NCBI GenBank assembly: GCA_025917655.1
Contig: CP084613.1
Location: forward strand, 1-64,000
Direction: 5' to 3'
Length of the DNA: 64,000 bases
Source: Chlorella sorokiniana
Taxonomy: Eukaryota; Chlorophyta; Trebouxiophyceae; Chlorellales; Chlorellaceae
The position numbers were made by a program, and so were the translations under genes. The notes beneath the pieces are model-generated. The model made no database searches. It was not told where the DNA came from and saw only the letters and a list, made by a program, of their open reading frames with translations. Each line of letters begins with the position of its first letter. Position 1 is the first letter of the stretch. Below are positions 11,401 through 61,412 of the stretch, one piece after another.

Positions 11401-14400
11401 GCCCACACCCCACCCTACCTCAGCCGCCCGTGCGCCGTCCTCCACCTCAGCCGCGCGCCGATCAAGGCGCGCCTGCCACTCGGTGAGCAGCCGCTCGCGC
11501 TCGGCAATCTGGCGAACGGCTTCCGACTTGAACTGGGCCTTCCACGCCTCCAACGACTCCTCTTTTGCCGCCAACTCATCTGCCTGATCCTACAGTGTGC
11601 AGATAATGATGACAGGGATGGCGCCGATGTAGAAGTGGGCAGGGGCAGGGCAGGACCTGAGGAAAAGAGGCCTCACGGAGGACAGGACAGGGGTGCAAGA
11701 AGAGGCTAAAGGGCCGGGTGGGCACCGGCAGCGGCAGAGGGCAGAGCCACACCTTGAGCGCGCAGCCCTCCTCCTCCAACGCCGCCATTGCAGCTTTCAG
11801 CCGGTCAGCCTCGCCATCGAGCCGCTGCTGAGCCGCCGCGATGCGCCGCTCCAAGGTGGCCAACTCGCCAGTCCGAGCCGCCAGGCGTGCCTCCTGGGCT
11901 TCGGCCTCGCGCCGCCGAGCAGCCAGGGCGTCTTCCTCGCGTGCCGCGGCTTCCTCCCACTCGGCTGCACGTTGTTCTTGCTGCGACACCAGCGCATCAA
12001 AGCCGGAGCGCAGCTGCTCCCGGTCTGTCTCCAGCTGCTCGCGCTGCAGCAGGTTGATTTGCGAAGAAGGGAGGAAAGTAAACTGCCAGGTTGAGCAGAG
12101 GAAAGCAGGGGTGGCCGCAGGCAGCCAGAGCCACAGGCGCAAGCGCGCATTGCGTGGGCCTCACTGCCTTGCAGACCGGCGGGCAACCTCGGCCGACCCG
12201 CGAGCGTCACACCTGGCGCGCCACGTCAGCCTCAAACGTGCGTCGCTCATCGTCCAGGCGCGCCTCTGCCGCCGCCTGCTCCGCCTGCCAGCGACCGCGC
12301 TCGGCATTGAAGCTCTCCATTTCCAACAGCATGGCCTCGTACTGCTGCTTCACCTGCGGCACAGCAGCGGGGCAGCCACATGACAAACGTCAACCGCCAT
12401 GCCGAACAGCCGGCAAGAGAGGTAAGTGTGCAGGCAAAACCCCAAACCGACACTGGGCATTCATGCTTGGCAGCAGCAAGACTGCGGGCAGGGCAGAACG
12501 CCAGCGTTGGCGCTGCAGCGGCCGGGCGCCGGCCGACGGCGCCATCAGCAGGGGGAGCGACCGAGGGCCCCACCTTTGCCACCTCCTCATTGCCGGCAGC
12601 CACAGCTTCATCCATGGCGGCACGGGCATCGCGGGCAGCCTGCACGGAGTGAACATCACACGCTTTGCCAGGCGTTGTGCAGGCGCGGCGATGAAGGCAG
12701 ATGCCTACTGCTGTAAACAAGAGACGGCCCTGCGCTGTGGCAGCAGTGGCGCTGCCCTGGGCTGCAGCTCGATGCACTAGCGAGTGCAAAGATGTTGCCG
12801 ACTTGGCACAACACTGTTCTCCTGCACAACTCAAACCACTTGCCCCACCTGCTGCGCTGCCTTGTGTGCCAATAGCGCCTTGTCTCGCGCCGCCTCCGCC
12901 TCCGCCGCCTCGCCCTGCGCGTCCAGCACGCGGCGGCGCACCGACGCCGCCTCCTCTTCTGCCTCGCGCAGCTGCCCCATGGCAGCCTCCACCCCTGCTT
13001 CCAGCTGCCGCAGCTCTTCAAGCATGCGCCGCCGCTGCTGCGCGTCAGCCTCTGCCGCTTGGTCCCGCTCCGCTTCAAAATCGTGCACAGCTGCCGCCAG
13101 CTCCTCCTCCCGCTGCTGCAGCTCAGCCTCGCGCGCCCCCAACTCCGCGGCCGCCGCTGCCTGCTGCTCAGCAGCGGCGGCGCCCGCAGCCCGCAGCCGC
13201 GCCGCCTCCTCCGCCGCGCTGGACCGCTGCGCCTCCAGCTCTTTTTAGCGGCAGCCGCCTCGACCACCGACTTCTCCAGGACCTGCTCCCGCTCAAGCAG
13301 CTCCCCCTCCATCTCAATCAGCCGCCTTTCCCTCTGCAGGTGCGCCGCCGCCACATCCTCGGCCTCCCGGACCCGCGCCTCTCGCTCCTTCAGCGACCGC
13401 GTGATCTCCTTGACCTGCAACACGAGGGCGAGCCAGGGCAGATGCGGCAGGGAGTCGCACCGAGAGCAGTGGCTACGGCGAACAGGCGCAGGACTGCAGC
13501 AGGCAGGCAGGCAGCTTCACGACGGACGCTGTCCAGCCGAACCACGTGGAAGACCGCAGCGGTCCCCTGGCGGTGACCATGCGCTGCAGCGACAAAGCGA
13601 CCGAACTCACCTGCGCCTCGAACTCGCGTTCGCGCTGCGCCAGCTCAGCATCCCGGTCCACGAGCGCCCGCCCCTGCTCCTCCATGCGCGCCGCCCGGGC
13701 CTCCAGCGCCGCCGCCTGCCGTTCGAGAGCCTGCTCGCCCTCCTTGGCCGCTGCCGCCGCCGCATCGCGCTCAGCAGCCAGGCGCGCTTGTTGCACGGCA
13801 AGCTCGCGCTCCGCCGCCGCCACTGCCGCTGCGCGCTCCTTCTGGTATCGCTCCTGCTCTGCACGCTGCGCGCTTTCCAGCGACGCAAGCCGGCTTTGCG
13901 CGCGCTGCAGGTCTGCCGTGAGAGCCTCCAGCTCTCGCTGCCCCGCCGCAATCTGCACCTTTAGCGCTTTTGCTGACGCCCCAGCGGCCGCTGCCTCGGA
14001 AGACAGGGTGTCGCGCTGCACCGCCAGGCCCTCCACCTCTGCTTTCAGGCGCTCGACCTCTGCGGTGTACTTGCGACGCATGTCTTCCACCTGCTGCAGG
14101 AACAGGTTGGACGCCTGCTGCAGCATGGAGTCGCCGGCCGCCGCCCGGGATTCCCGCTGTTTGACAAAGCTGCCGCAGCTGCCGCCGCAAAGCTGCTCAA
14201 TGGCGCTGCAGAGTGCGGCAGGGCGGCGGGCCGCGAACCAAACACCGAGTTGCGGTTCAGCTCAGCACCCAAGTTCTCCTTCAGCGAGCTGCCGCTGCGG
14301 GGAGTATTGGCTGCAGACGCAAGGTCCATGCCGGAAGCCAGCTGCGAGCTGGGGGCTAGGGCTGCAGGCGCACCCTGCAGGCTGGCCTGCGGTGTGGCAA

Positions 14401-14700
14401 GCGGCTCGCCGCCGCCAGCCGCCGCTGCAGGCGTGTCAAAGCGCTTGCGCATGCTGTCCAGCATTCCTGCCGACTTGGAGAGCACGCTGTGCTGCTCGCT
14501 ACTGCGCTCTGCCACCTTGCGTTCATACTGCTGCCACTGCAGCCGGTGGGCACAGAAGAAGCGAGAGCAGGTGGGGCGACGGCGACGGGCGGGTGACAGC
14601 GGCGGTAAGGCAGGGGCGGCGAGATTGTGACGGCAGCGAATCTCATTCTTGCCTGGGAGGAAAGCTCCTCAAAACGCTTCACGGCCGATTCTCCCGACAT
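2487..14700 (-). CDS. Giant coiled-coil protein, ~28 exons
   Basis: The gene starts at ATG 14700 (MSGESAVKRFEELSSQ, then a GC-AG intron and WQQYERKVAERSSEQ) and stops at 2487. Nearly every exon encodes Ala/Glu/Arg/Gln-rich, Pro-free sequence with a heptad look, such as REAALAQRVSKQATQQADLA. This predicts a rod of roughly 2,500 residues or more. A Ser/Ala/Pro-rich N-terminal linker (about 14.2-14.5 kb) and a Ser/Ala-rich tail (about 2.5-2.65 kb) look unstructured. Larger exons lie near 3630-2960, 4155-3770, 6920-6410, 8100-7620, 8895-8220, 9545-9030, 13420-12840 and 14540-13600. The coiled-coil frame slips by one base near 13242-13246 (A5 run), near 6840 and probably near 9490 and 14200. The last may instead be a very short intron. 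Such rods serve as cytoskeletal, centrosomal or Golgi scaffolds; I do not recognise the family. Confidence 0.75.
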
Positions 14701-15066
14701 AGTGCAGCCACCGTTTGAGTTCCGGTGGGCGCTAAGGCCAAGTGCAAGATATCATTCTGACTTGAAAAGAAGTGAGTTTTCAGGGCAAGCAGATATCCAG
14801 CTCAATAGGCAATAGTGAAAGCGATCTGAGCATTCGGGGTGAGAGAGCGCAGGCCCACGGCTTGTGAGGAGGGAGCATGCAGCCGCACTCATTGCACATC
14901 GAGTGCAGCGTGGGCGGCGAGGGCCAAGGAGCGCTGCAGCTCAGCACGGCAGCACGACAACCTGGCGCCGGCGGGGCATGCTATTGCCTGTTCAAAGGGC
15001 TCGGTCACCCAAGTCTCGATTGGATAGTCGGACGGTCACAAGCATTCTCCTCAAAGCGCCGACACC
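14701..15066. promoter_or_regulatory. Divergent intergenic promoter region
   Basis: These 366 bases separate the start codons of the minus-strand coiled-coil gene and the plus-strand membrane-protein gene. They must hold both 5' UTRs and both promoters, so a shared bidirectional promoter is likely. I see no clear TATA box. Confidence 0.5.
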
Positions 15067-17119
15067 ATGGGCACCCTGGCTGCCGTCGTAACCCTCGTGC
15101 TCGCTTGCTCTGCCTGGGCAGCTCTTGCTGAACCTGCATGGCTGCAACAGTTTAGCTCGCTACCGCCACAGGGCCGACTTGCCGCCTACCGACTGATGGC
15201 TGAGTGGCAGGCGCTGGCGGCGGCAGCAGCGGCGGCCGAGGCGGCGGCGCAGGACCGGCTGCCTCTGGTGGAGCTTGCAGCGCAGAAGCAGCAGCTGCTC
15301 CGTGGACTGCTCCCGGATTTGGATGCTGCAGCCAGCGAGAGTGCCGAGGTGCAGACCCAGGCTCATGCCGCCCTGGCTGCGCAACTGGCGGGCACCGCTT
15401 CCATTCCCACCCCGCCGCCAAGCCGGCTCTCCCGCGCGCTCACGCTCGTCAACATTGCGTGGTTTGTTGGCTGTGTGCTGCTGGTGGCCGCCGTCGTCTC
15501 CCTGGCAGGCGTTTATTTAGCGGCCCTAGTCATGCTCATCCCCCTGCTGGCCTGGGAGGCGATCGGCTATGCGGCCTCGCTGTGGGTGCTGCATGCCGCC
15601 ATGCACAGCGCCCCGGCACGGCGCCTTACGTCGGCCTCACCGGCCTTCTCATGCTCACCGCAACTGTCGGCGGCTCACTGGCCCTGCACCTTGCGGAGCG
15701 CATCAAGAACAGCGAGACGGCGGCGGCGACCCTCATGGGCGGCTTTGCGCTGCTCTACGGCCTGGTGGCGGTCCGCTTGCAGGCAAGGCTGGGCGCGGGC
15801 TGCCTACACTGTTGCGTGCGAGGTTACATCTCCAGCCGCTCTTTCTCTTCAAGCCATCAGGTATTCCTGTGGGGTGATGTTGAATGTTTATTGCAGCCGC
15901 GACGTGCAACCCACTCACACACACCGCCCTGCGCAGGCCACCTTGCTGGGCACGCTGGCGGTGTGGTGGGCCATGAGCGCCCTCGGCTTCTCCATCTTCG
16001 TCTTCCCCTTCCTCACTGTCATCGGCTTCCGCAACGGCCTGCTGGCGCCCTTTGCCGCCTCGCTGGCCCTGCTGCTGGCCTTCCTGCCCTTCAAGGTGGG
16101 TGGGTGGGCAACTGACGCTGCAAGAGAGAACCAGCAGCGCTGTAGGTGGAAGCACTCTGCCTGCTGTGGGTGGCAGCGCCAGCGCTTGCCTTCCTCTCGC
16201 CACGCTAGATGGCAGCCACATTGCCCGGCCGCCGCCAGCCTGCCGCTGTCCCCTGCAGGTCGCTCCCCACGCCCTGCCCACCCCGCCCTGGCTGCGGCCC
16301 TTTGAGCCGGGTGTGTGGCTCTGGTGCACGCTGTGCCTCAACCTGGCCAATCTCATCCTCGCTCACCGCCACTGGCAGAGCAGCAATGGCGGGCAGAGCG
16401 TGCCCGCCGAGGTCTGGGCGCAGCTGCCGCTCGGTGTCAGGGTCCGTATTGTGCTGTACCGCGCACGCCGGGTGAGGATGACGAGTTGCCTGCTTTTGCT
16501 GTGGTCTCACACTCTCTGTGTCAGAGGTTTCCTGCTGCCGCTGCTGAAGATGGCTCTGCATGGTGAAGGGAGTGGCACACCAAGCAGGAATGCCGCCCCC
16601 CTTCCTGGCGGCGTATGATTATCTTCATTCGCAAACCGTGCACCGCCTTGGTATACCTTCCCGCAATCTCCCCTATGCTTGCGCCTGCCTGCAGTGCCTG
16701 CTGAGCCAGGTGCCGGCGGTGGCCGTCATTGGCGGCACGCTCACCTGCGGCGTGCTCCTGGATGTGGAGCCGTGCCGCTCAGTGGGCGCGGTGTTTGGCT
16801 TCCTCTGGTTCCTCTCCAAGCTGTGCGAGTGCAACTGGAAGAGGTAAGCGCGTTGCGCCGACTGGGTTGATGAGGCAGGCAGGCAGCACACAGACTGCTG
16901 CAAGCGATGGCATTTGGAAAGAAGAGTCCACCAATTGGTGGACATGCCCCGTGCTGGCGTGATTAGCATCATAGCTCCGCGTTTCGCGCTGCCGCCATGT
17001 GCAGGGTGGGTTTCGCCTGGTCGGCGCTGGTGCTTGGGTCGCTGCTGTGGGGCGCGGCGTGGGCGGTGCACAGGTGGCCACATTTGCTGATGTTCGGCAC
17101 AGCTGCATGCATCATTTGA
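15067..17119 (+). CDS. Polytopic membrane protein with signal peptide, unknown family
   Basis: Five exons fit: 15067-15782, 15937-16095, 16259-16471, 16695-16843 and 17005-17119. The first intron uses a GC donor (CAG|GCAAGG) with phase 0 on both sides. The ATG opens a clear signal peptide (MGTLAAVVTLVLACSAWAALA). A ~110-residue Ala/Gln/Leu-rich helical segment follows, probably lumenal or extracellular. After it come about ten hydrophobic spans, including LTLVNIAWFVGCVLLVAAVV and VGFAWSALVLGSLLWGAAWA, ending in a short tail. The frame slips by one base at a CCCC run (15611-15614): MHSAP continues naturally as GTAPYVGLTGLLML in the next frame. Total length is about 450 residues. No transporter or enzyme motif is recognised; the join between exons 3 and 4 is the least certain. 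Confidence 0.7.
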
Positions 17120-17351: not shown

Positions 17352-19625
17352 ATGTCTCGCAAGCTGGTACTGTGCCTCCTGGCGCTCGCCGTCAGCTATG
17401 CAAACGGCCTGGAGAAGCCCCCTTCTCACTGGAGGACTTTGGCACCGCTACCGGCGTTCCAGCGAATTGTACAGCATCTGGGGGCGGCATGCCGTCCTAC
17501 TGGGTGGAGATGACAGATGTGAGCGCTGAACTCGTGACCTGACCGGATGGGAACGTAAAGTCGGCTGTTGCTGCCCTCCCGACAAGCGGGCTTGCTTGCG
17601 CTTGCGAGTTCCCGTGTGCAAGAAAGCGGGGAGGAAGGGGGGTATCGCAGTGCAGGGTTTCGTAACATGCTCCGGCATTGTTCCACTGCTGCCGCCGCCC
17701 TCGCCGCCAGCGCCGCTTGCTGTGCTTCCCTTACCATGCAAGGCTCGCTATTTTTCTCCTTTTACGTGTCCCTCTGCAGCTACTTAACTACACCCAGTAC
17801 TACAGCACCTCTGGAGACCTGTCTGGCGTGCCGTCGCCGCTGCCCTTCCCCTACATGCAAACCGCAACCGACACGAAGGCGCCCGGCTGGCTGTCCACCT
17901 GCATTGCGCGCTCCCCACAGCCCCTGAGGACTGCTCTGGCGACGACTGCAACGTCTACATTGAGGAGTGAGTGGTTCCGCTGCATGGATCCATCTTGGCA
18001 CGGGCGCTGCGCAGCTCCGATCGGCCAAAACATGCAGTTTTCAAGCAGGGGCCCCGCCTGCTGCCTGATCTTCTGCGTGCCTCTGCCAAACTCGCAGGTG
18101 GGGCGTGGAGTGGCTAGAGTTTGCCCTGATCAACTGCTTCGGCGGCTTGTGAGTCGTTTTCTGCCTGTATCCCTCGCATTCCTGCAGTCAGTCACGACTG
18201 CAGCAGCTGCCCCCTCCCCGCGCTCCCTTTCTCAAGTGTACCGCCCGGTGCCCCTTTCCTTCTGCAGCCCCAACGCCAGCGCGGTTTCCTTCTTCGGCAA
18301 CCCCAGCCTGGACCCGGCGAGGTGGCACTCACCGTCACCCAGACCTGCAAAAAGTGAGCGTACATGTCCGCGGACACGTACATCCGCTGTGGAACATGCG
18401 CAACAGCTGTACACATGTGTTCTGCATGCGCACTACTTTCTCGCCTGCACCTGTAGCTAGTCAGCAAGCAGCGGCGCTGCCCTACTGCCACATGCACAGT
18501 GTCTTGTCTGGCACACCTCCCCTCATATGCAACCCTCCCCCGCAGCTATTACTATGGCCCCAGCGAGGAGTGGGACTTCTTCTACTCCGTCACCGACCAG
18601 GTGGGGCGGCTATGGGAAGGGGAGGGGAAATTCTATTTTCGCATCTGCCCTGAATGTTGACCAGAGGGGAGCTGTGATGCAGCCAGGAAAGCAGGTCAAC
18701 AGCGCACTGCCATGGCAGCTGGCCAGCTGGCAGTGCCCTTCCGCTGATGAGTCAGCAACCTCTCCTTCGAGGAGCTTACACCCCCACCCCCATGTCCACC
18801 CCACCGCCTCATGTGCTTGCAGTGGGGCAATAAATGGGCCCTGCAGACCGTGCACTCCAACGATACCACCGAGGATGAGTTCGATGCCAACATCGATTCT
18901 GTAGTCTGGCCTGAGGGCTGGGCGTGGAGAAGGTGTGCATGCGCATCGGCAGCGGCAGGAGCTGCAGCAGCTGCAGCGCCTCAACCCTGCACCACATGGA
19001 CCATATGCCAAGCGTCGCCCTCATGCCAATGCCGCTGCGCATTTTACTATTCCTGTAGCGGCAGCGCGCCCCGCCCTACCACTCCACCCCCGTCTCACAC
19101 AGATACTTCTTTAAAGAAGGAAATTTCCGTACCCCTACCTACGCAGGTTCCCCTGGAGGAGACTGTGGAGATGGTTCCCCTGCAGGTGGGGGCCGGCTGC
19201 TACGCAATGATTCTGAAGGATTCCAACTTCAACAGCTGGCATCTGTACACGTGAGTTTTGTCGGGGGGGTAAAGGTGTTTGGGGGCGCGTGCACTCAGGC
19301 GATGCTGATTGTAGTGCAAAGAAAACAAGATCAGTTCCTCCCTTTCCCTCCATGCCTCTCGCCCCTTCCCCTCGCTTCCCCCGCTGTCCTGCAGCTACCC
19401 AGAGGGCGGCCTCACCTCAGGCAACTCCTGTTCGGCGCCATGGGCGGCACTCAGGGCTGCACCGTGCTGGATGCCCAGTACACTTTCGAAAACATTGGAG
19501 AGATGGCGGGTGCCCCTGCCGAGGCCCCGGCCCCTGCCGAAGTGCCCTCTGACGCCGGACGCTCAGCTGGCGGCCCGGCTGCACTGCTGCTTGTCGCCGG
19601 CGCCGCCCTCGCCTTGCTGTTCTGA
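17352..19625 (+). CDS. Secreted, probably GPI-anchored protein, unknown family
   Basis: Eight exons fit: 17352-17518, 17780-17966, 18098-18148, 18268-18353, 18546-18600, 18833-18932, 19147-19250 and 19395-19625. The start MSRKLVLCLLALAVSYANG is a signal peptide. The ~330-residue mature part is Cys-, Tyr- and Trp-rich with several N-glycosylation sequons (NYT, NAS, NDT). It ends DAGRSAGGPAALLLVAGAAL plus three hydrophobic residues, a textbook GPI-attachment tail. The protein is therefore probably a cell-surface or wall protein. Frame is lost by one base at least four times, always in short C or G runs: 17418-17422, 17913-17916, about 18313 and 18920-18922, and probably again near 19430. With those slips the segments read continuously (for example PEGWGVEK to VPLEETVEMVPL). 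I recognise no catalytic domain. Confidence 0.65.
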
Positions 19626-20303: not shown

Positions 20304-23032
20304 TCAGGCGGTGACCTCAGAGAAGCGGGGGAGGAGCCGTACATGTACTCCTCAAACCGGCGGACCTGCGGGACGGGGAAGAAACGAGAAGCGTGGAGCA
20401 TGCAAAGAGTAAGCAGCGGAAGCTGAAGGCTGCTAAGTCCGCAGCAGGGAGGCTTAGCGGCAGCGCCTCGCGCCCTTGAAAGCGGCGCCACCAATCGAGC
20501 GGCACCGACGCACCCGCTGGCATGGCAAGAGGCATAGCTTCGCGGTGTAACCCCTGCACCTCCCTGGCCCGGCATCTCCCCTGCCACGCTGCACGCCCCC
20601 TCCTCACCTCGCCCACGGAGCCGTAGCAGATCTGGGTGCGCTGGTCATGCTGCAGCACCTCCACATCCAGCCCCGACACGCACTTGCCATCGCACGACGA
20701 CGCGCCGCCCGCCTTCTCCACCAGCAGCGCCAGCGGGCCACCTCGAACAGCAGGCGCAGCTTGGCCTTGGTGGAGGGGGAGGTGACGTTGGTGAACACGC
20801 CCTTCTCCTTCACAATGATCTGGAACACATCGGGCACCTGCAAGGTTGGTTGGGGTATGGGGGGGGAGGGTGTACAAGGATGGGACCACGCAGGGTGGTG
20901 GCAAGATCGGCAGGGAGCATTTATGCACATAACAGCAAAGCTCAGCGTCTTATGCTCTCCATCCAGCGCCCAGCCCACGTCAAGCGAGCATTGTGGAGCG
21001 CACCATGCCACCGGTGTACCGCAGCGTGTACTTCTCGCCGATGTAGTATGCGATCAGCTTCTCGTAGGCAGAATTGTCAAAGGTGGCACGCAGGTTGCCG
21101 GGCGAGAACATCTTGCCCTCGCCAATGGTCTCCGTCTCCTTGACATGCAGCCACTTGCCGTCGTCCTGCGGTCAGGGCGGCGCACAGGGAGCAGGAAGCG
21201 GGCTGAGAAGGAAGGTTGCATTGACAGCAGCTGTGCAGCAGTGGCTGCAGCTGTGCGACCTAGAATTCTGCAGCGGGCGGCGCCGGGTCAGCTGGCGAGG
21301 AGAGCTGCTGCAGGCACAGAACGCGCAGAGGGGGCAGGCAGCTGGCGCGAGATCCTGATTGCCCGGGACTCTAGCGCCAGAACCCTGCACGCTCCCCGTC
21401 AACTCAACAGCCCACCACCGCCACCAACCCACCGCCCAGCCCCCACCTGCAGCAGGAACTCGTGGCAGCCGGGGGCGTCCTTGAGCGCAATGCAGAAGAC
21501 GGTGCGAGGGCCGTAGATGCCCATGCCCGCCGCCGCCTGCTCGCGGCCCGTGATGCCGGTCAGCTTGTCGCCGGGCCACACGCCAAAGATGGTGCCGACA
21601 GAGAAGTTGGTGTCCACGATGGAGGAGCCGTCCAGGGGGTCAAAGGCCACGGAGAAGCCCTCGCCTGCAGCGTGCAGCAGTGCGGCAGGGCGGTGAGGGA
21701 ACAGGGGTGAGGGTGCAAGGCGCGGGAGCTGGGGGCTTCAGGGGGCGCCGGCGCCGTTGGGCAGCCACATGCTGCAGCCAGCTGCGGGCAGGGCATGGCC
21801 CCTAGACAACCGGGAGCAGCATCAGTGCAGCATTGCTCTGACCCCCTCATGTGTTCTCCCGCCCCCTACTGAGCTCACCGCCCAGGTCCAGGGGCTCGGG
21901 CACCTCCTCGGAGCAGGCCAGCTTGCAGCAGCCCGAGTACTTGAGCGCCTCGAACAGCAGCTTGTCGGCCAGCAGGTCCACAGCCAGCTGCTCGTCGCCA
22001 AAGGAGTTGACGCAGGCGGTGCCGCCGCACGACGCGGTGCGCACCTGGCGTGCAGGCAGGGGGCAAATCGGGCGTCGTGCGTCGGGCGGCGGAGGGCGAC
22101 GGTACGCGCGGGATCTGGCAGTGAGGCCCCTGGTCGGACCAGGCTGGTTGCTGGGCAGTGCAGAGCATTAGGTGATGCAAGCAAGGATGTGCCGCCGCCC
22201 CCGCCGCTGCCGCACCTTGTACGCAATGGTGCGCACGGCCTCGGACATGCTCATCATGAGCTGGCGCAGCTTGGGGTCGGGGGTGGCCTCCAGCAGGAAC
22301 TCCTCCAGGGTGTCGCCGATCTGCGGGCACGGTGGTTGACACGGTGGTTGGAAACAAGACGAGGTGAGGCGGAGGAGGGGAGGCAAAGGGGAAAGCGGGC
22401 GTGGCCTGTTGCGAGACTAGGCCCTTGAGCGGTGCTGCCGCCAAAGACGCCTCTGATCAGCTCTGCTGAGATAATGGGGGCGAGGGGGCCAGGCTGCTGT
22501 GGCTGGTAGGTTAGCAGCGCTGTCACAGCGATGCATAGGCGCTGAAGACCAAGTAGCGATACAACGCTGGTTGGGCTGCTATTGGTGCGGCGTTGAACGT
22601 CATCTCTATGTTGCAACCATACCAAGCATGCAGCACTGAAAGGACACTGCCAGTAGCTGCAAGTCATGCACTCCAGACGCAGGCAGCGGCAGGCACCGGC
22701 GCAGGCAGGGGCTGACCTTGGCCTGGGCAGCCACGGCGGCGCGACGGGCGCTGCGACGGGCGCTCTTGGCGGAGAAGCGGGCGCCGGCAAAGGTGCTGGA
22801 GCTGGAGGACTGGGCAGCGGCGCGCACGGCCACCCGGGGAGCCACCTGCAGGCATCAATGCAAGACATCAGGATAAGCCCCTGCCCTGAAGCGGCTGCAG
22901 GCTTGCAGGGGTGTCGGATATCAAATCGATGCCCGAGACAAGTGCCCGGACCTTCATGCTCGCAGAGCTCTTAGCGGTGGTCGCCACACGGGCTGCGGCG
23001 GTCGCCTGGGCTGAGATGGTGGCAGCGGCCAT
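20304..23032 (-). CDS. SBPASE: Sedoheptulose-1,7-bisphosphatase, chloroplast
   Basis: The enzyme dephosphorylates sedoheptulose-1,7-bisphosphate in the Calvin cycle in the chloroplast stroma. Eight exons: 23032-22952, 22845-22717, 22320-22216, 22044-21879, 21664-21447, 21165-21004, 20837-20608 and 20365-20304. The first two encode an Ala/Ser/Arg-rich transit peptide ([20 protein letters not shown]). [14 protein letters not shown] carries the thioredoxin-controlled Cys pair typical of SBPase. [18 protein letters not shown] is the metal- and phosphate-binding core of the FBPase/SBPase superfamily, and [14 protein letters not shown] and [10 protein letters not shown] match plant SBPase closely. 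Two single-base slips occur: in GGG at 20735-20737 ([13 protein letters not shown] is split) and in GGGGG at 20327-20331. With the latter, the C-terminus would read [12 protein letters not shown] and stop at 20304; as given, the frame runs to 20171. Confidence 0.95.
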
Positions 23033-23495: not shown

Positions 23496-26400
23496 ATGGC
23501 GCGGCAGGCTCGAAGCCCTCGGGCGGGAAAACGTGGGTGTTCCCTCGCTGCATGCTGCGCCCCGCCTGCTGCCCATGTTAGTTGACTGTTCAATCAAACA
23601 TGCGCTGTTGCTCTTTATCTGTTTCTCTTTCTGCAGCGAAGGCCTGTACCACTGCGACTACTGTCACAAGGATTTGAGTTCCACGCTGCGCATAAAGTGC
23701 GCCGTGTGCAAGGACTTTGATCTCTGCCTCGAATGCTTCAGGTTTGTTGCTCTGGCAATGGGCAGAAGCTGCCGCGGGCAGCCAAACGCCGCTTCCGACG
23801 ATGAAAAGGTTGCCAGCCTAGCAATCTATAAGGCTGCTGGGGTAACAGCAGGGCTGGCGGCTCTTCAGCTGCTGCCAAAGCTCTGGCATCCCGTCCGCAT
23901 TCACCATGCACATTCCCAGCCCCCCCACCCCCACACCCCCATCCCACCCCACCCCACCCCTTGCAGCGTCGGTGTGGAGCTGAATGTGGCCGGCCACTCC
24001 TCTGACCATGCCTACAAGGTGGTGCAGAGCCTGGGCTTCCCGCTGTACCACCCTGCCTGGCGGGTGAGCAAGTGTTGCGCATGATGGGATGAGAGGGTGG
24101 GCGCGAAGGTAGCCGCATGCGGCCCGCGTGGCGGGGTGCGAGGGTGGGCGCAGGCACCGTTGCATGGCGGGCGTGCAGCCGCAGCTTCAGCTGGTTGCTT
24201 GGGAGTGCAGGCGCAGGGCAGCGATTGCGAAGCAGCCCAGGTGACGGCCAACCCACAGACACATGCCAACAGGCCAGCTGAGCTGGGTGGAATTTCCTCC
24301 ATACCACTGACTGTCATTTGGGAATGCCGCGTTGCCCCACTTTGTGAGCAGGCTGACGAGGAGCTGCTGCTCCTGGAGGGCATCGAGATCTACGGGCAGG
24401 GCAACTGGCCCAAGGTGGCGGGTGAGTCTATGGCGTCTCATGCAAGCTGCATGTCCTCCCCTGCGCGACCCGCCCGCCTGCTGAGCAGCCAGCCGGCAAG
24501 GGCTGCCCTTCCTGCCGCTGGGCCCCTGCACCTGTGCCCACCCGTGCGCCTCCTCGCCGCAGAGCATGTGGGCAAGGGCGCCGACGAGTGCCGGGCCCAC
24601 TACCTGGCCACCTACATCGAGCACGAGCAGTTCCCGCTGCCCAAGCGCGATGCATCGATGGCGCATGTGAGCTCGCGGCGCCCCCTCCCTGTTGCCACAA
24701 GCTGCTGCAGTTGCTGCCAGGCTGTGCTGCTGCATGCACACGGTCCTGGAGATCAGCTGACTCCGAAATGGATGGCAGGGTTAGGGCTGCCGTTCTGTGA
24801 TGTGCAGCTGGCCAAGGCTGCGCGGCGTCCTGCCGCGGTCCCTCTCCTGCTCCAGGTGGACATCCAGGAACTGGTGGAGGAGTACCGCCGTACCGGACGG
24901 GAGATCACCAGCATCAAGGCGGCGGCGCAGGCGGCACCACAGACCCAGCCCAAGAAGGCGAAGCCGGCGGCGGCTGCCGTGAAGCTGGAGGGTGGCGACG
25001 TGGGGCCCAAGCTGGAGGCAGGGTCGGCCCCGGAGGTGGCAGAGGTGAAGCGGGAGGAGGGAGACGGCGACGCGGATCAGCCCCATGCCACCACAGCGGG
25101 CAAGCAGCCGGGCGCAGCGGGCAGGAAGCATCGTGCGGAGGAGCCTGCTACAGCGCAGCAGCGCGGTGCGGCGCCGCCAGATGCAGGCGTGCACCAGACC
25201 CAGGGCACGTTTGCGCTGCGGCCGGCGGCAGCGGGCGGCGAGGCCTCACCATTTGTGGTGGCTGTCACCCCCGGCGGCGGCGCCGACCCCTCGAAGGCAA
25301 GCGTCTGTGCTGCAAGGGCAGCCTCTGTTTGCCGCCTGCCTCCGCTACGCCTTCACCTGCCTGCTGTACCTCATGTCCCTTTGCGGGCATGCCCTTCCTG
25401 TGCAATTCGATCATAATGTTTGCGCCCCATGCCCCGCAGATCCCCGCCGCCACCGAGGCGCAGCAGACAGGATACAACATCAAGCGCAACGAGTTCGAGC
25501 CGGAGTGGGACGCCGAGGCGGAGACCATCATTTCCGAGCTGGCGGACTTCAGGTGGATGGGGTGCAGGCAGAGCAGCAGGGCGTTGTTTCCCGCTGCAGA
25601 AGCAGGACTGTGGCTGGCTCTGCGCGGCCTGCCGTGCTGCGGGATGCCGCTTGCTGCTCGTCGCCTGGCCTGCGGCGGCGCCACACCCCGTATGGTTGGG
25701 ATCGCTGCTGCACAACATCAACCTCTTGGCTGCTGCAGCCCCGAAGATCCCGAGGAGGAGACGGCGCAGAAGGACCGTCTGATTGAGGTGAGCTGCGGCT
25801 TGGCGGAGGTTTACTAAACCACCATGCGCGCCCTGCATCGCCCAGCAGCACCGCGTTGCATCTGCCCGACCACTGCCGGGTTGCTGACTGCCACTCCTCT
25901 TCCACTCCAACCACCTTATCAGCAACCCGGTCCACCACCTACACCGACCGCCCCTGCAGATTTACAACCGGCGCCTGGACGAGCGCGCGGCGCCGCCAGT
26001 TCATCCTCGACCGCGGCCTGCTCAACATCAAGCGCCAGCAGGTGCGGGGTGCATGCACACAACCCTACGCAGCAGCTGTGGGACACCTCCCTCCATGCGA
26101 CTGGGCCCTGGATGGCAGGGCTGAGGGGGCACGCGCTGCCGCCCGGCAACTCAACTTTCTGGGCCTTGTCTGTTCACACCCAGTGTTTACCGTGTGGGCA
26201 TGGATGGGTGTCCATGTGTGAGATGTCTCTCTTTGTGTTTGTGTACGCTTCAACCATCCGGCCTTACAGGCGCTGCCTCCCACCCTTACCCCCACCACCG
26301 CAACCCTTCGCCCCTGCAGACCCTTGACAAGCGGCGCACCGCCGCCGAGCGCGAGCTGCAGGGCGGGCTGCGGGTGCTGGCGCGCCACCTGCCCCAGGAT

Positions 26401-28286
26401 CAGTGGGAGGCGCTGGCAGACGGCATCGCGGTGCGCTGCTTGTGCCCATGCTTGCTTGTTCTGTCTGTTTACACACATCAATTCTGCTAATCCACATATC
26501 ACATTTCTTTCTTTTGTCAACCGTGGCTTGTTTTGCAGGTGGAGCAGCGGTTGCGGGCGCGCATCGCTGAGCTGCAGGAGTACCGGGCTATGGTGAGGGC
26601 TGGGTGGATTTGCGGGCGCTTGCGCGCATGTGATTGTGTGCTTGTTGCCGCGTCTGTTGCTGCTGTGGCTGGCGGGTGGCCGGTGGTCGTTGTTCCACAT
26701 GTCACGTGCAGGCAGTCCTGCCACGGGACAGCACAAACGAACGCCGCGCGTTGCAGCCTTTTAAGGGGTGTGGCCACCGGGCTATTCTTTCGAGGCTGGC
26801 AGTGCCGCTCCCTCAGCTTCTCAGCGGTTGTGTCTGTGCATGCAGGGTCTGCGCACGTTTGAGCAGGTGGATGAGGTGGAGGCGCTGCAGGAGAGCCGGA
26901 AAAGCGGGGTGAGTACTAGTGCGATTGCTTACTGCTTTGTGGTTGGCATGCCGCTAACAGCCTGCATACCTCGGGCCCGCCTGCTGCTAGCCCTGCTGCA
27001 GCGGTTGCATTGTCCTCTCACCTGCTCTCTTGCATGGGCAAACCCCCGCTGCATGCACCAGCGCCCCTTTGACTGCCCTCCCTTCTCGTTTTCCTGGCCC
27101 CCGCAGAGGCGCAGCAGCAGCAGCAGCAGCAGTCGGTGCGGGCGCGGCTGAGCCGGGTGCCTTTGGATGAGGGGGCGCTGCAGGAGGCGCTCGTGGAGGT
27201 GCGGGGCCCCGCTGCTGGGCTTTGCTGCATGCCGCAACGAGCGGCCCGCATGGTTGCCTGCTGGTGCTGCCTCAGCTGCCCACACCCAATTGTCTCTCTT
27301 TCTTACTAGTACCCCATGTTCACGCTGACAGCAGCGCGCGCCCAGCATCCACCAACTGCCTGCCTGTCGTCTCTGCAATCACCGTGCAGACCATAGGCGC
27401 GGCGCACGCAGCGGCGGCGCTGGGCCAGCAGCACAGCACGCTGGCGGAGGGCGCGGCAACGGGCTGACCGCGTGGCGCCAGTGAGCTCGCAACCCTCTGC
27501 CTTGCCCTGAACCATCCTTTGCGGGCTCCCTCTTTGCCTGCTGATGTCAATGAGCATGCTGTCGCCTGTGCTTTGCCCCCTGGCCTTACCAACTCGCCTT
27601 GCCAGCTTCTTGACCCCGCTGCCTCCCTGCCTCCTTCTGCAGCAAGCGCGGCGTGCTGCTGGACATCACCTCCCTGCCTGACGTCGAGCCGCTGAGCCAG
27701 CGGGTGGGCGGGTGCCAGCCTGGCAGCCGCACGCCGCATCCGGCCCTCCTCCCTTCCTCTGAATGTGCTGCGGTTAGACAAATGCCCGCGGCGCTGCTGT
27801 GCTTGATGTCCATGGCTTCTGAAACCTCGCTCCACCCTTCCCCGTTGTTTACCCCAGGAGCGCACGCTGTGCGCATCCGAGCGGTACCTGCCAGCGCAGT
27901 ACCTGGCGATAAAGGCAGCCGCCCTGAAGCTACAAGAGCAGAAGGGCCGTGTGGCCAAGAGTGACATCCAGCGCTTGCCTTTTCAGGTGGACCCTCAACG
28001 AATGCAGCGGTGAGTGCAGCCGGGCCTGGGTTGCACAGCGGGGTTGCGGGCAAGGGAGTGCACTGGCTCGTTCTGCTGCGGGACCTGGCGGCCGCAGCTT
28101 GCTGGCGGGAATACTTGAGGGATGCGGCATCTGCCATGCCCAGAAAGCACTGCTTCTAATCTCCACTCCCGCCGCAGGCTGCACGACTTCTTTGTGACCC
28201 AGGGCTGGATCACGCCGGGCCCCGCCAGCGCCAGCAAAGACCCACGGCAGCAGCAGCAGCAGCAGCAGCAGTGGCAGGCAGGATGA
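23496..28286 (+). CDS. ADA2: Transcriptional coactivator ADA2 (ZZ, SANT, SWIRM)
   Basis: ADA2 links the GCN5 histone acetyltransferase to its targets in SAGA-type complexes in the nucleus. Domains in order: a ZZ zinc finger (YHCDYCHKDLSSTLRIKCAV then FDLCLECF, from 23638); a split-exon SANT/Myb-like domain (ADEELLLLEGIEIYGQGNWP, 24352, then EHVGKGADECRAHYLATYIE, 24564); a basic and acidic linker (24856-25300); the ADA2 central helical region (GYNIKRNEFEPEWDAEAE, 25469; IYNRRLDERA, 25960); and a C-terminal SWIRM domain (ERTLCASERYLPAQYLAIKA, from 27858, to RLHDFFVTQGWITPG). Two CAG tracts encode polyglutamine. The start is uncertain: the frame of the ZZ exon is open upstream through NKRRREDGAAGSKPSGGKT but has no ATG there, while an ATG at 23496 is one base out of frame. 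Confidence 0.92.
27112..27132 (+). repeat. CAG tract encoding polyglutamine in ADA2
   Basis: Seven pure CAG codons sit at the 5' edge of an ADA2 exon, read as EAQ7SVRARLSRVPLDEG. Pure CAG without CAA suggests a length-variable tract. Confidence 0.85.
28248..28271 (+). repeat. CAG tract encoding polyglutamine at ADA2 C-terminus
   Basis: Eight CAG codons follow the SWIRM domain, close to the stop codon of ADA2 (…KDPRQ8WQAG). It is the second polyglutamine tract in this protein and lies outside any folded domain. Confidence 0.9.
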
Positions 28287-28764: not shown

Positions 28765-31158
28765 TCACGCCTGCCGCGACCTCTTCGCATCCTGCTGCCG
28801 GTCGTGCAGCACAAGCTGCTGCGCGGCGGTGCGCAGCTGTATGACGTTGACCACCTGCTTGACCGCAAAACCGGGCAGCGCCAGCAGGGCGACAACGCCG
28901 GCCCAAGGGAGCGCCGGCGGCAGGGCGAAGCCTGCACGGGAGCAGATCGGAGGTGGGCAGCAATACAGTAGGACATGGATGCATGGCCCTCCCAACAAGG
29001 GCAGCAACAGCAGCAGTGCATCCTCGGATGCCAGCGACCCACACAGAGCGACAAATCCATCAACGTTCGACCCGCCCACCTGCCGCTGCCGCCGCATGCA
29101 CAGCAACTGCGGGCAGCGCCAGCGCCGGCGCAGCGTACGTCTGCCAGCTCAGCAGGTACAATGCGAGGTACAAGACCTCGCAGCAGATGCAGCAGAAGCC
29201 CATGAAGAGGCGGGAGCGGTAGTAGGCGCGCACGACGAAGCTGCGGCTGTTTGTGTCCTGCAGCAAGGGGCAAGTGCGGGATGGGGAGTTAGCAACGGTG
29301 GGAGTGTGAATGGCCACTCATTAAGGCAGCAGCAGTACAATAACGTGTACCAAGACCGCGGATCCAACAGAGTGGATTGCAGTGAAGGCATCGCCAGATG
29401 GGGCGGGGAAGCTGGGCAGAAGGCGCCCAGTGTGGCGACAGAAGCCTCTGGATGCACCACAGGAGGCACAACTCCTCAGCTACTGCGTGTTGTTGTAACC
29501 TGAGCGCAGCAGCAGCAACATGAAGGCTGAAGCCGTGGACCCCCAGGCCCAGAAAGACTGCGCCGCCCAGGCCACGGCGGCGGGCGCCAAAGGTGCGCCC
29601 TTTCAAGAAGCTTTCTACATCTGGGCAAAAGCATCTTGCGACCACCCGCTGGGCGCTTTGCCGAATGGCTGGCTCCCACCACCCCCGCAGGCGCCGCGCT
29701 CTACGGCAGCTCTCTGCGGCTGCGCTGCTGGGCCTGTCGCGTGCGCGGCCCGACCTGGGTGCCCGCGTGCCCCCGTGGCTCGAACCGTGCTCGTGCTGCT
29801 CCCCTCCCTGTTTGGCTTCTTTTGGAACTCCCAGACCGCCCTGGACCGCTGCGCACAGCAGCACGCCGCCTACGCGTAGTGCGTCGCCCGTGAGCGGTGC
29901 CCGGCATGGCAGCACGGAAAGCTGCGCTTTTGGTCGGCAGCGACAGCAGGAGCGCAGCCATTGTAGGGCAGCAGTAGTCCTCGCTCTAACCCAACGACAG
30001 GCCCACCTTGTGCGTGCTGGCGCCCATGGCAAGGGTGGAGTACATCTGAAACCAGTGGCTGCACAGGGGACAAGCTCAAGGGCAGAGGGTGAGCGGGGCA
30101 CGCTGAGCAGGGGTACGCCGCTCAAGACAAGAGGGCTGCTGGTGGGCGACAGCAGGCGGCAGGGGCGCCAGGGCGCCGCCCTGTGTGTGCAAGGCACTGC
30201 TTTCCGTCTCGGGCTGAAACATAGGCGGACAGCTGTTGTTTATCTGCTTGGCCTCCAGGTCGCACTGGCGCCATACGCCTCATGCAGCACAGCACCGTGC
30301 GGGTGTGGCAGCCGCGGGCTGAAACAAACAGGAGGACAGAAGCACCGAGCCAACCAGCACGAGGGTCGGCGACGGCGGTTCCCACCTGAAAATATCCAGC
30401 ATGATGAGGAGGAGGAAAGGGAGGTGGGCGGCGGGGTACCGTGCCGCCAGCACGGCCAGCAGGCAAGCTGTGGCCACGCGGTCTGTCACCATATCCAGCA
30501 CTGCACATGGTTGCGGCGGGGGGCGGGGGGGCGGGGGCGGCGGCGCGGATGGTTAGCGACGGCCGCTGCATCCCAGCAATGAAGCAGTAGTGCATCGAGC
30601 GTTACTGTCCGTTGTTGCCAGGGCGCCCTTCTGCAGTCTCCACACACAACCCGCGCTTGATGCGTAGTGCAAGCGTCCCGCGCTTCCGCCTCCAGCCCCC
30701 TCACAGGCCTCTTCTGCCAGGCCCGCGACTCATGCCTCCATCACTACCACACACCGCGCCCCCGCGGCCTCACCGCTGCCCAAGGTGGAGCACTGGTGGA
30801 ACTTGCGGGCAAAGCGGCCGTCCAGCTCATCGCACACGAAGCTGGCAAAGTAGGCTGCGCAACAGGCGGTGGGGTTGCGTTGCGCCACTCCGAACGCAAA
30901 CACAGCGGCCGCCACGCGTGCATAACCTGCAGCGCAGCGCCAGATGGAGGGAAGCGGGTCAGCTAGCAGGTGGCTGAACAAGCAGCTGTGGCGGCGGCGT
31001 CCGCTGGCCCCCGAGGCGGCAGTGCCCCTGCTCCTAGCCTGCGTCTGCTGGCATCGCAATGCACCTATGAGGTTTGGAATATATATGTAAACATTGCCGT
31101 GGCGCCCAAAGAAGGAGGGCTTCTCCTCGCGAAGGTTTTGAGCACGGGTGCGAGCCAT
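28765..31158 (-). CDS. PIS1: Phosphatidylinositol synthase (CDP-alcohol phosphotransferase)
   Basis: The enzyme joins CDP-diacylglycerol and myo-inositol to make phosphatidylinositol in the ER membrane. Six exons: from ATG 31158 (…VYIYIPNLIG); about 30932-30775; about 30497-30386; about 30052-30008; about 29260-29077; and about 28933-28765. Across the second and third exons the sequence reads CDELDGRFARKFHQCSTLG then SVLDMVTD. This gives the full CDP-alcohol phosphotransferase signature D-x2-DG-x2-AR-x8-G-x3-D-x3-D. SHWFQMYSTLAMGASTHK and RSRLFMGFCCICCEVLYL are hallmarks of plant PIS, as is the end KQVVNVIQLRTAAQQLVLHD. Several membrane spans flank the motif. All splice phases match without base slips. 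The ~750-base intron between the fourth and fifth exons contains an entire gene on the opposite strand. Confidence 0.95.
29520..29879 (+). CDS. Small membrane protein nested in PIS intron, ENOD93-like
   Basis: Two exons, 29520-29592 and 29691-29879, with a 98-base GT-AG intron, lie wholly inside the PIS intron on the opposite strand. The ATG begins MKAEAVDPQAQKDCAAQATA; AGAKGAALYGSSL spans the splice. Two one-base slips, near 29705-29710 and in the C5 run 29770-29774, would let it continue through AALLGLSRARPDLGARVPP and VARTVLVLLPSLFGFFWNSQ to ALDRCAQQHAAYA and a stop at 29879. The result is a protein of ~90 residues with two hydrophobic stretches. The layout (N-terminal helix, GAK before the first span, an ARxxL loop, second span) resembles the early nodulin 93 family of plant mitochondrial proteins, but identity is low. 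Without the slips the frame would be shorter and less coherent. Confidence 0.5.
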   Translation: MKAEAVDPQAQKDCAAQATAAGAKGAPFQEAFYIWAKASCDHPLGALPNGWLPPPPQAPRSTAALCGCAAGPVACAARPGCPRAPVARTVLVLLPSLFGFFWNSQTALDRCAQQHAAYA

Positions 31159-38556: not shown

Positions 38557-55479
<16,923 letters not shown>

Positions 55480-55781
55480 GCCGGTTGCGTACTGTGCTCC
55501 GCTGATGGCGCCTTCTACAGCATTTCTGCACCCTGCCTCAGACCGAGGCGCTGCGTTACGCCCCCAGTGGTCAACATGCTTAATGTTGCATTCTTGTTGG
55601 CTGCACAGATGTACAACAACTTGCTGCATGTGCACTGCATGAATCCAATGATCCGGGCTCTGCTTGCTGCTTCTGGTTTTCTGGCAAAGTGCTGTGAGCA
55701 TAAGATGTACCGGCAGTGTTACATGTACACGTTTGAATTGGAGCCACCGGGGTGTTATGGTGCCAGAGGGGGCGTCAACCT
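55480..55781. other. Convergent gap, BRR2 and ankyrin gene 1
   Basis: The gap holds both 3' ends. TTACA at 55719-55723 reads TGTAA on the minus strand 59 bases past the ankyrin stop and is a candidate poly(A) signal. No gene is seen. Confidence 0.4.
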
Positions 55782-58528: not shown

Positions 58529-58844
58529 CCTGCTGCGCCAGTATTATGTTCTTGCAGGCCAAATGTGGGAGACGGGCTACTTGCGCCTCAGCCCCTTATC
58601 GAACATCCCACTTTCCGACACACAGCGCAGCACGCCGCAGCGCAACGACACCCGCCCTGGCTGACCCTGTTGGGCTGAGATGTGAGGATGTTGCTGGCAA
58701 TTGGGTGTCGTGTTTACTGGCTGCTGAGCTGACGGGCTGCCGTTTTGACTGCTCACTCTTAGGTAAGGTTGCGCAATTAAACAGGCAGGGCAGGTAAACT
58801 GATGGGGCCGGAGGGGGAGTCAACATTGGCCACAACATACACAG
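58529..58844. other. Intergenic segment between ankyrin copies 1 and 2
   Basis: This holds the copy 2 3' UTR and the copy 1 promoter. It is nearly identical to the segment 61413-61666 apart from small indels. No separate gene is seen. Confidence 0.5.
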
Positions 58845-61412
58845 TCAGGGATCAGACTCAAATGCATGCATCAAAATTTTGGGAAGAATCTCTGAGGGAA
58901 GGGACACACCGGTCCGCAGCTTGGCGCGGCGCAGGCGGAGCAGCGCGGTGCGCAGCTGCGCTGCCTCATCAGTCGCCAGCCGCTGCACAGCCTGACGAGC
59001 CTGGTCCGCAGACCGGCTCAAGGCAGAGGGCACAGCGCGCAGCAGGCCGGGGCAGGGGGTGGGGATGTGCTGCCACTCCAAGGCAGACAGGGGGCCATGG
59101 CCGATCACGAAATCTGCCAGCAGCGGAAGCCCGCGAGCACCGGCAGCGAGCAGAGCCGATAAGCTGTTCAGGCGGTCGCCCGCTGCTGCATGCAGCAATC
59201 GGCGGGCGGTCCTGCGGTGCCCAGCGGTGTCCTCCGACAGAGCCACCACAAGAGGCAAGCGCCCCTCCGAATCAAACCATCTTGCAGCTGCCTTAAGGTT
59301 GTCGGATGACAGCAGCGCCTGCACCGCAGCCGCGCGGCCTTCCTCGGCAGCCAAGTGCAGCGGAAGGGAGCCGTTGGCAGCTGCAACCATCGCGGCCTCA
59401 GGAGCAGCTGCCAGCAGCGCCTCCACCATCTCTACGTGGCCGCTGAATGCTGCCAGATGCAGCGGCAACTGGCCATCTGCATCCGTCGCCAGCAACGAGC
59501 CATGACCGCTGTCTGTCGCAAGCAATGCCTCCATGAGCGCCACGTGGCCGCGTTGTGCCGCCACATGCAGCGGCAGCCAGCCTTCAAGAGTCCTCGCCAG
59601 CAACGTGGTGTGTCCGCTGTCTGCCGCCAGCAGCGCCTCCACCATCTCTACGTAACCGTCGAATGCTGCAAGATGCAGCGGCAGCCAGCCATCTGCATCC
59701 GTCGCCAGCAACGAGCCATGGCCGCTGTCTGCCGCCAGCAGCGCCTTTGCCACCGCTACATGGCCGTGCCCTGCCGCCAGATGCAACGGCACGTTGCCAA
59801 TTGAGTCCCTCGCCAGTAATGTGGCATGGCCGCTGTCTGCCGCCAGCAATGCCTTCACCACCTTCACGTGGCCGTGAATTGCTGCCAGATGCAGCGGCAG
59901 AAAACATTCAGCCTTCGCCAGCAACGTGCCATGGCCGCTGTCTGCTGCCAGCAGCTCCTCCACCACCGCTACATGGCCGTGAATTGCTGCCAGATGCAGC
60001 GGCACCCTGCCGTTTGCATCCCTCGCCAGCAACGTGCCATGGCCGCTGTCTGCCGCCAGCAGCGCCTCCACCACCGCTATATGGCCACTCTGTGCTGCCA
60101 GATGCAGTGGCAGCAAGCCATCCCCATTTGTCGTCAGCAACGAGCCATGGCCGCCGTCTGCGGCCAGCAGTGCCTCCACCGCCGCTGCATGGCCAAATTC
60201 AGCTGCAAGATGAAGCGGCAGACTGCCCTCTGCATCCGTCGCCAGCAACATGTCACGGCCGCTGTCTGCAGCCAGCAGCGCCTCCACCACCGCTGCGTGG
60301 CGCGCTTTGCCGCCGCATGCAGCAACAAGCAGGCCTGCAAAGCTTCAGCCACCAGGCTGGAAGGGCCCGCCGCCAGCAGCGCTCGGGTTGCTAGGCTGCT
60401 GCCACCTGACGCTGCCCCGCGAAGGAGATCGGCCAGGACTGAGCGCTCCTCCGGCGCTCCCCTGCATAATTTACGTCCCATCAATGCTGGAGTAACCATG
60501 AGCAACAGCTGCAGCGCAGCGTTGTGCTGCTTGTCAATTGCCGCAGCCAGCAGACGCCAAATATCAGGTTCAGATGGCCGCGAGCCTGCAAGTTCAATCG
60601 GTGTTTTACGGCCCAGAAGGCCTGCTGGTCATGCAAAGGCGTTGTGAAAGCTTGCAGTTGCATGCATGCCAGCTTGGCAGTTGCAGTCCTCACCATCGTC
60701 GAGAGCGCAGTCTGCAAGCTGCTGCAGCACACCCCGTAGGGGCTCCTCTGACAGGCTGCCGCCATCAAGCATGCCTTTGCGGAACCTGCAATTCATGCAG
60801 CATATGCTTCAACCATGACCTGCCCTGGCTGCCAGCAGGCACGAAGCGCGACACACACTTACCACAACAGGCAGGCACTTGGCTGTGAGAGCTCGCTCTC
60901 CTTGTGACGAAGATCGGCTGCTGAAAGATCTTCCCCGCATCCAACGCTGCTTTGACTGCGATTGGATGTGAATATTACATGACAGAACAGTGACAACATC
61001 ACCCTGCACCCAACTAGAGCATGCCGCTGACCGAGCGCCGACATCCACAAAGGCGGCAGTGGCGGCTCTCACCGGTCACTGCATCGCACACCACGGCGGC
61101 AGCCTCCTCCGTGAACAGCGGGGCGATCTCGTACGTCTCATCATTGAAGTGGACCACAACCTGCACTTTGTGGGCCTTGCTAATAAACAGGGTTCCTTTT
61201 CCGCTCGCAAAAAGCGCGCCTCTGTCGAAACCTCATTGTGATTGCGACCCCACCTTAAACCTGCCGTCCGCCTCCTCCTGTATGTCGCAAACTGGCCCGG
61301 CACCCCCATGGGGTAGGATGCCTGCCACAGGCAACCTGATGCGCCAGTAATATGTTCTAGCAGGCGAAATGTGGGAGACGGGGTACTTGCGCCTCAGCCC
61401 CTTATCGATCAT
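58845..61412 (-). CDS. Ankyrin-repeat protein, tandem copy 2
   Basis: An ATG at 61412 opens MIDKGLRRKYPVSHISPART and runs into LPVAGILPHGGAGPVCDIQE. An intron then joins GRFK to VVVHFNDETYEIAPLFTEEA and VVCDAVTG. Further exons encode AADLRHKESELSQPSACL and the leucine-rich spacer. The final exon, continuous from about 60296 to 58845 (more than 480 residues), holds ten to eleven ankyrin units and the C-terminal block ending GVSLPSEILPKILMHAFESDP. The frame slips by one base at about 60300 (TGGCGCG where copy 3 pattern predicts TGGCCGCG), splitting AAAKRGHAAVVEALLAADSG. The protein is probably soluble; no membrane span or signal peptide is seen. The exact start and the small 5' exons are inferred from comparison with the other two copies. 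Confidence 0.75.
59380..60300 (-). repeat. 108-bp ankyrin coding repeats, copy 2
   Basis: Nine to ten near-identical 108-bp units. The segment CTGTCTGCCGCCAGCAGCGC (+ strand) recurs in most units and encodes the invariant ALLAADS. Confidence 0.85.

What the first reader, a model, noticed from the sequence alone, without database searches (positions are those of the whole stretch)
13242..60302. Recurrent one-base losses in short homopolymers across conserved genes
Single-base frame breaks fall in short runs in at least eight genes: A5 13242-13246, C4 15611-15614, C5 17418-17422, C4 17913-17916, G3 18920-18922, G5 20327-20331, G3 20735-20737, C5 29770-29774, C3 38916-38918, G4 43019-43022 and near 60300. 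They hit SBPase and BRR2, which must work. In each case the protein continues coherently in the next frame. A systematic consensus error (one base short) explains this better than decay of so many genes.
Basis: partly seen in the sequence, partly recalled or inferred. Interest (0 to 1): 0.75.

Follow-up and report, generated by a model that had tools for sequence, protein, structure and literature searches.

The report
Sequencing errors breaking algal genes
In a sample of this green-alga genome sequence nearly every longer gene is broken by one-letter slips, many of them in runs of G or C, so these look like errors of the draft sequence and not broken genes in the living alga.

Summary
The frame breaks are really in the sequence, and they are almost certainly consensus errors of the assembly. 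A self-trained exon/intron model that allows frame slips called 17 breaks in 18,884 coding bases of the window and 105 in 67,888 coding bases of 20 other nuclear 10-kb stretches. Frame-clean simulations gave 1 break each. 40 of 42 gene models with at least 600 coding bases are broken. Losses outnumber gains 94 to 28. 50 of 94 losses lie within 3 bases of a run of 4 or more, against 25 of 220 recovered artificial losses. Counts of G/C runs drop sharply after length 5, inside and outside exons. Plastid atpI and rps2 and mitochondrial atp6 and rps2 are broken too; plastid psaA, psaB and the matched part of rpoB are open. No reads were available. Interest is low.

The parts
13242..13246 (-). Frame break (net -1) at an A5 run (T5 on the + strand) in a long coiled-coil gene (model 2651-14700)
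   Evidence: called at 13245; gain 16.9, above all 6,058 controls
15611..15614 (+). Probable frame break at C4 in a membrane-protein-like gene; an intron 15349-15608 is a rival reading
   Evidence: gain 9.2, p 0.0035; the model prefers the intron
17418..17422 (+). Probable frame break at C5 after a signal-peptide-like start
   Evidence: gain 5.2, p 0.011; not called by the model at any of three settings
17913..17916 (+). Frame break (net -1) near C4 in the same gene
   Evidence: called at 17916; gain 12.9
18920..18922 (+). Frame break near G3 in the same gene
   Evidence: called at 18917 at the laxest setting; gain 14.5
19425..19433 (+).
   Evidence: called at 19429 at the laxest setting; gain 11.7, p 0.0007
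20327..20331 (-). Frame break (net -1) at C5 (gene strand) near the C-terminus of SBPase
   Evidence: called at 20326; collinear with 7b2o; local gain only 3.2, p 0.021
20735..20737 (-). Frame break (net -1) at C3 (gene strand) inside SBPase
   Evidence: called at 20736; gapless alignment to 7b2o across the break; gain 27.3
25985..25996 (+).
   Evidence: called at 25993; gain 6.7, p 0.008; X lies inside the TADA2A-like_3rd match, in a query retyped with changed letters at the break
26890..26898 (+). Frame break call in the ADA2-like gene, doubtful
   Evidence: not supported by the local test (gain -7.2; flanks leave the short exon)
27453..27461 (+). Frame break call in the ADA2-like gene
   Evidence: gain 3.5, p 0.02
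29770..29774 (+). Frame break at C5 in a small gene without a Pfam match; a second break is likely near 29713-29720
   Evidence: gain 15.4 and 7.4; 0 Pfam families; no exon called there by the model
35811..35817 (-). Frame break (opposite sign) at G7 (+ strand) in a DUF3611 gene
   Evidence: called at 35816; inside the PF12263 match; gain 21.6
38557..55479 (+). BRR2 (U5-200K helicase) gene model, 52 exons, 7 called breaks (38918, 39157, 40495, 43024, 50809, 51826, 53775)
   Evidence: homologue alignments
38916..38918 (+). Frame break near C3 in exon 2 of BRR2
   Evidence: called at 38918; loosely collinear with human BRR2; gain 16.2
43012..43024 (+). Frame break beside the DEIH motif of BRR2; one base short or two bases long
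   Evidence: called at 43024; homologue DDR-GPVLE; gain 13.5
50804..50808 (+). Frame break (net -1) at C5 in BRR2
   Evidence: called at 50809; gapless alignment to human BRR2; gain 20.2
51820..51826 (+). Frame break (net -1) at C5 in BRR2
   Evidence: called at 51826; gapless alignment to human BRR2; not tested locally (one search was mis-centred)
53771..53780 (+). Frame break (opposite sign) in the C-terminal part of BRR2, not at a run
   Evidence: called at 53775; gapless alignment to human BRR2 at the break; gain 21.4
60295..60305 (-). One base missing in an ankyrin-repeat unit relative to sister repeats, not in a run of 3 or more
   Evidence: one gap column against three sister repeats; gain 6.2, p 0.0086; not called by the model

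Best explanation
The breaks are consensus errors, spread over the whole assembly, of a long-read genome that was not corrected well with accurate reads. Where the true DNA has a G or C run of about five or six, the base caller or consensus often writes one base too few; less often it adds or drops bases elsewhere. Each slip shifts the reading frame of an otherwise normal exon. Shown: breaks in the window, in the nuclear sample and on both organelle contigs; loss bias; enrichment at runs; a drop in run lengths after 5 for G/C; collinear homology across the checked breaks. Inferred: that the living alga has intact genes, that the sample stands for the genome, and that the data are nanopore-like.
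For: 105 breaks in 67,888 coding bp outside the window and 17 in 18,884 bp inside; three frame-clean simulations gave 1 loss and 0 gains each per about 85 kb. 40 of 42 models of at least 600 coding bp, 48 of 56 overall, are broken. 94 losses against 28 gains. 50 of 94 loss calls are within 3 bp of a run of 4 or more, against 25 of 220 recovered random deletions made in clean exons (Fisher p 1.7e-14). G/C run counts for lengths 4, 5, 6, 7 are 576, 228, 18, 4 inside exons and 1474, 704, 105, 32 outside, while A/T runs outside exons decline evenly (396, 98, 21, 6); in four organelle stretches A/T runs of 6, 7, 8 number 198, 116, 22. SBPase and BRR2 stay collinear with solved homologues across breaks. 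Plastid atpI and rps2 and mitochondrial atp6 and rps2 are split between frames. Long-read-only assemblies are described with the same kind of damage (PMC7500977 and PMC12007338, passages seen).
Against: No reads or second assembly were available. Plastid psaA and psaB are open over the whole profile and rpoB over positions 23-373, and several plastid frames that I named by eye (psbE-, ycf3-, minD-, cysA-like) look open, so organelle errors are sparser. 29 of 94 loss calls have no run above 2 within 3 bp, so runs do not explain all. The model was trained on the same sequence and allows slips; its control uses idealised exons, so its false-call rate in real exons may be higher; one call (26894) failed the local test. 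Published profiles differ in part: Kastor's deletions were more often in A/T runs, and in Drechmeria polishing added more insertions than deletions.
Confidence: 0.95

Rival explanations
1. The genes have really decayed: the indels are in the alga's DNA and these are pseudogenes or a degraded subtelomeric region.
For: The window is the start of a contig with telomere repeats, where decay is common (general knowledge).
Against: The window has fewer breaks per coding base than the other stretches (p 0.037). 40 of 42 longer models in the sample are broken. Genes that must work, in the nucleus and on both organelle contigs, are among them. SBPase and BRR2 stay close to their homologues on both sides of breaks.
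Confidence: 0.01
2. Real frameshifts that are bypassed by programmed ribosomal or transcriptional slippage at G/C runs.
For: About half of the loss calls sit at runs of 4 or more, and the protein continues in the next frame.
Against: Breaks go both ways (94 to 28) and sit in 106 distinct hexamers among 122 calls, placement noise included. They hit genes of three separate translation systems. The drop in run lengths is also present outside exons.
Confidence: 0.01
3. Missed introns or wrong exon borders mimic frame breaks.
For: At 15611 the model explains the frames with an intron. Three small genes have no Pfam match. One call, 26894, failed the local test.
Against: At the homologue-checked sites (SBPase 2, BRR2 4) conserved sequence continues directly across the break and leaves no room for an intron. 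The model had introns of at least 30 bp available and still preferred slips.
Confidence: 0.03

Closest known systems
Homopolymer indel errors in long-read-only assemblies (Drechmeria nanopore study PMC7500977; Kastor PMC12007338; passages seen)
   Same: Small indels at homopolymers break the frame of most conserved genes: in Drechmeria fewer than one-sixth of 305 test genes were full length in the first assemblies. In Kastor's test genome deletions peak after four to five equal bases, and a few delete a non-repeated base.
   Different: Platform and source of this assembly are unknown here. The losses here sit mostly at G/C runs, whereas Kastor's were more often at A/T runs despite 59% G+C; exons here hold only 53 A/T runs of 4 or more, too few to compare. 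Drechmeria polishing added more insertions than deletions; here losses lead 94 to 28.
Programmed frameshifting (for example in Euplotes, recalled)
   Same: The protein continues in another frame after a break.
   Different: No shared motif at the breaks, both signs, three translation systems, and a matching drop in run lengths outside exons.

Membership tests
Uncorrected long-read consensus errors | Frame breaks spread over the assembly and not confined to one locus | tested here: met
   19 of 20 other nuclear stretches; the remaining one (L013) has no called exon
Uncorrected long-read consensus errors | Enrichment at homopolymers with loss bias | tested here: met
   50 of 94 against 25 of 220; 94 against 28
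Uncorrected long-read consensus errors | Run-length distribution cut short independent of gene models | tested here: met
   G/C counts drop after 5 inside and outside exons; A/T counts drop after 7 in four organelle stretches
Uncorrected long-read consensus errors | Organelle genes affected as well | tested here: met
   plastid atpI, rps2 and mitochondrial atp6, rps2 broken; psaA, psaB and part of rpoB open
Uncorrected long-read consensus errors | Accurate reads contradict the consensus | not testable with these tools
   no reads were at hand; the genome has no relatives here
Pseudogenes | Breaks confined to dispensable loci that have lost sequence constraint | tested here: not met
   SBPase, BRR2 and organelle genes affected and still close to homologues
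Programmed frameshifting | Common slippery motif and one direction | tested here: not met
   106 distinct hexamers among 122 calls, both signs

The most novel reading that the evidence does not exclude
A minority of the G/C-run breaks, for instance in the genes without known family around 15-19 kb, are real and are decoded by slippage, hidden among many consensus errors.
Probability: 0.01. Interest if true: 0.7.

Novelty: not a real feature. Interest (0 to 1): 0.08.

Why it matters
It matters as a data-quality warning. Gene counts, pseudogene calls, selection tests and protein predictions from this assembly will be wrong for most longer genes, if the sample is typical, until it is polished with accurate reads. 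It also shows that a small self-trained exon model can estimate the error rate of an assembly without reads or a reference: about 1.4 called breaks per coding kb here, about 2 per kb after allowing for missed ones (122 in 86,772 bp; recovery 60-66%).

Tried and rejected
Tried: identifying the assembly through the literature. A search for Chlorella assemblies listed PMC11005252 (abstract and passages seen), whose genomes are 53 and 58 Mb with plastids of 107-110 kb, so it is not this one. A search for 'green alga', 'nanopore' and '38.8 Mb' gave no paper. Pfam gave no family for the genes at 15611, 17418 and 29770. The local two-frame test did not support the call at 26894. In that call I had moved the test centre away from 39157 and 51826 to stay inside their exons, so those two rows (both negative) do not test the breaks. 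The idea that the window is special because it is subtelomeric was rejected: its break rate is lower than elsewhere.

Considered and rejected: real decay, programmed frameshifting, missed introns as a general explanation, and a purely run-based cause (29 of 94 loss calls have no run above 2 nearby).

Choice of organelle genes: plastid atpI and rps2 were picked because the ORF list already looked broken; mitochondrial atp6 and rps2 came up unasked in the same family searches; psaA, psaB and rpoB were picked without a look. So 4 of 7 is not a fair rate: of the five not picked for being broken, 2 are broken and 3 open. Nuclear matches were not analysed.
Full report
What the window is. The window is bases 1-64000 of contig C3 of a 38.8 Mb, 15-contig genome. 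It starts with CCCTAAA telomere repeats. The 13 large contigs are taken as nuclear. C14 (77,013 bp) and C15 (117,793 bp) are A+T-rich in the stretches read and carry organelle genes, so they are taken as mitochondrion and plastid. Gene content (SBPase, many introns, high G+C) points to a green alga; this is inference, and the assembly was not identified.

How breaks were measured. I wrote a two-strand exon/intron hidden Markov model with 3-periodic coding statistics, splice-site matrices, a 30-bp minimum intron and optional one-base slips. I trained it on the window and 20 nuclear 10-kb stretches (264 kb in all) until the score stopped changing. It recovered SBPase in 8 exons and BRR2 in 52 exons without homology input. 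At a strict slip setting it called 17 breaks in 18,884 coding bp of the window and 105 in 67,888 coding bp of the other 20 stretches; one of those 20 (L013) had no exon called. Three simulations that replaced exon interiors with frame-clean codons gave 1 loss and 0 gains each over about 85 kb. Random artificial deletions were recovered in 56 of 93 and 67 of 112 cases in simulated exons and in 220 of 333 cases in real clean exons, with a median placement error of 2 to 3 bases in the simulated exons. So the strict counts are mostly real and miss a third or more. The control exons are idealised, which may flatter the false-call rate.

All 11 show a gain for a two-frame reading; 7 exceed all 6,058 control positions and the other four have p between 0.0035 and 0.0206. 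The model called 13242, 17913, 20327, 20735, 38916 and 43019 at the strict setting and 18920 at the laxest one. The sites fall in 7 genes, because 38916 and 43019 are both BRR2. Of these, 26894 is not supported by the local test, 27457 only weakly, and 39157 and 51826 were not properly tested there.

Homology. The SBPase model aligns to the solved chain 7b2o over query residues 1-315 at E 4.7e-189, with one unknown residue at each break and no gap. BRR2 pieces align to human U5-200K at E 7.7e-87, 2.1e-129 and 5.7e-57; the breaks at 50809, 51826 and 53775 are crossed without gap. At 43019 the homologue reads DDR-GPVLE, one residue shorter than the one-base-short reading, so two extra bases are the better guess there. 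The N-terminal part aligns more loosely (E 5.8e-63): it crosses 38918 and 39157, while 40495 lies in an acidic stretch that cannot be aligned well. The breaks at 25993 (ADA2-like) and 35816 (DUF3611) lie inside Pfam matches, the first in a query that I had retyped with changed letters at the break. At 60300 one base is missing against three sister ankyrin repeats.

Pattern in the sample. 48 of 56 gene models, and 40 of 42 with at least 600 coding bp, carry a break; models cut by stretch ends are counted as they stand. Losses outnumber gains 94 to 28 (p 1.6e-9). 50 of 94 loss calls have a run of 4 or more within 3 bases, against 25 of 220 recovered artificial deletions (p 1.7e-14). By length, runs of 4 have 22 calls (6.0 expected) and runs of 5 have 27 (2.7 expected); 29 of 94 have no run above 2. 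The share of G/C runs in exons with a loss call within 3 bases rises from 1.2% at length 3 to 4.2% at 4 and 11.4% at 5. G/C run counts drop by a factor of about 13 from length 5 to 6 in exons and about 7 outside, while A/T runs in the nuclear sample decline evenly. In four organelle stretches A/T runs drop from 116 at length 7 to 22 at length 8. These drops need no frame calls and are what a run-length limit of the sequencing method would leave.

Organelles. Plastid atpI and rps2 run into another frame within conserved sequence, and mitochondrial atp6 and rps2 are split between frames (frame offsets worked out from the coordinates). Against this, plastid psaA and psaB are open over the whole profile and rpoB over positions 23-373, and other plastid frames named by eye look open. 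The two plastid genes were chosen because they already looked broken; of the five genes not chosen for that reason, 2 are broken and 3 open. Errors in the organelles are thus present and sparser.

Mechanism and verdict. The best explanation is a long-read consensus that was not corrected well with accurate reads. Published long-read-only assemblies are alike in kind: in Drechmeria fewer than one-sixth of 305 conserved genes were full length at first, mostly through homopolymer errors (PMC7500977, passages), and in Kastor's test genome deletions peak after four to five equal bases (PMC12007338, passages). They differ in detail: Kastor's deletions favoured A/T runs, and Drechmeria polishing added more insertions than deletions. 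Real decay, programmed slippage and missed introns each fail on the spread, the two directions, the three genomes affected or the homologue alignments. The platform (nanopore-like) is inference. The decisive test, accurate reads at these sites, could not be run.

Noticed in passing
1-200: Contig begins with CCCTAAA telomere repeats that become degenerate inward; the window is subtelomeric.
   Followed up: partly
55700-64000: Tandem array of about three ankyrin-repeat gene copies, about 2.8-3.0 kb apart, with a 108-nt repeat unit. Some unit spacings are 214 and 106, not multiples of 3, a possible internal ruler for further indel errors.
   Followed up: partly
2651-14700: Very long alanine-rich coiled-coil gene on the minus strand, 33 exons in the model, three break calls.
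   Followed up: no
32821-34423: A gene with a C-terminal MYND-like zinc finger (named by eye, no search) that gets 8 break calls at the laxest setting.
   Followed up: no
L013 (G000:C8:500001-510000): Stretch of 51% G+C in which the model called no exon, unlike the other 19 nuclear stretches; perhaps centromeric or transposon-rich.
   Followed up: no
L019 3210-6543: Plastid ftsH-like gene (named by eye) spread over several frames, suggesting further breaks.
   Followed up: no
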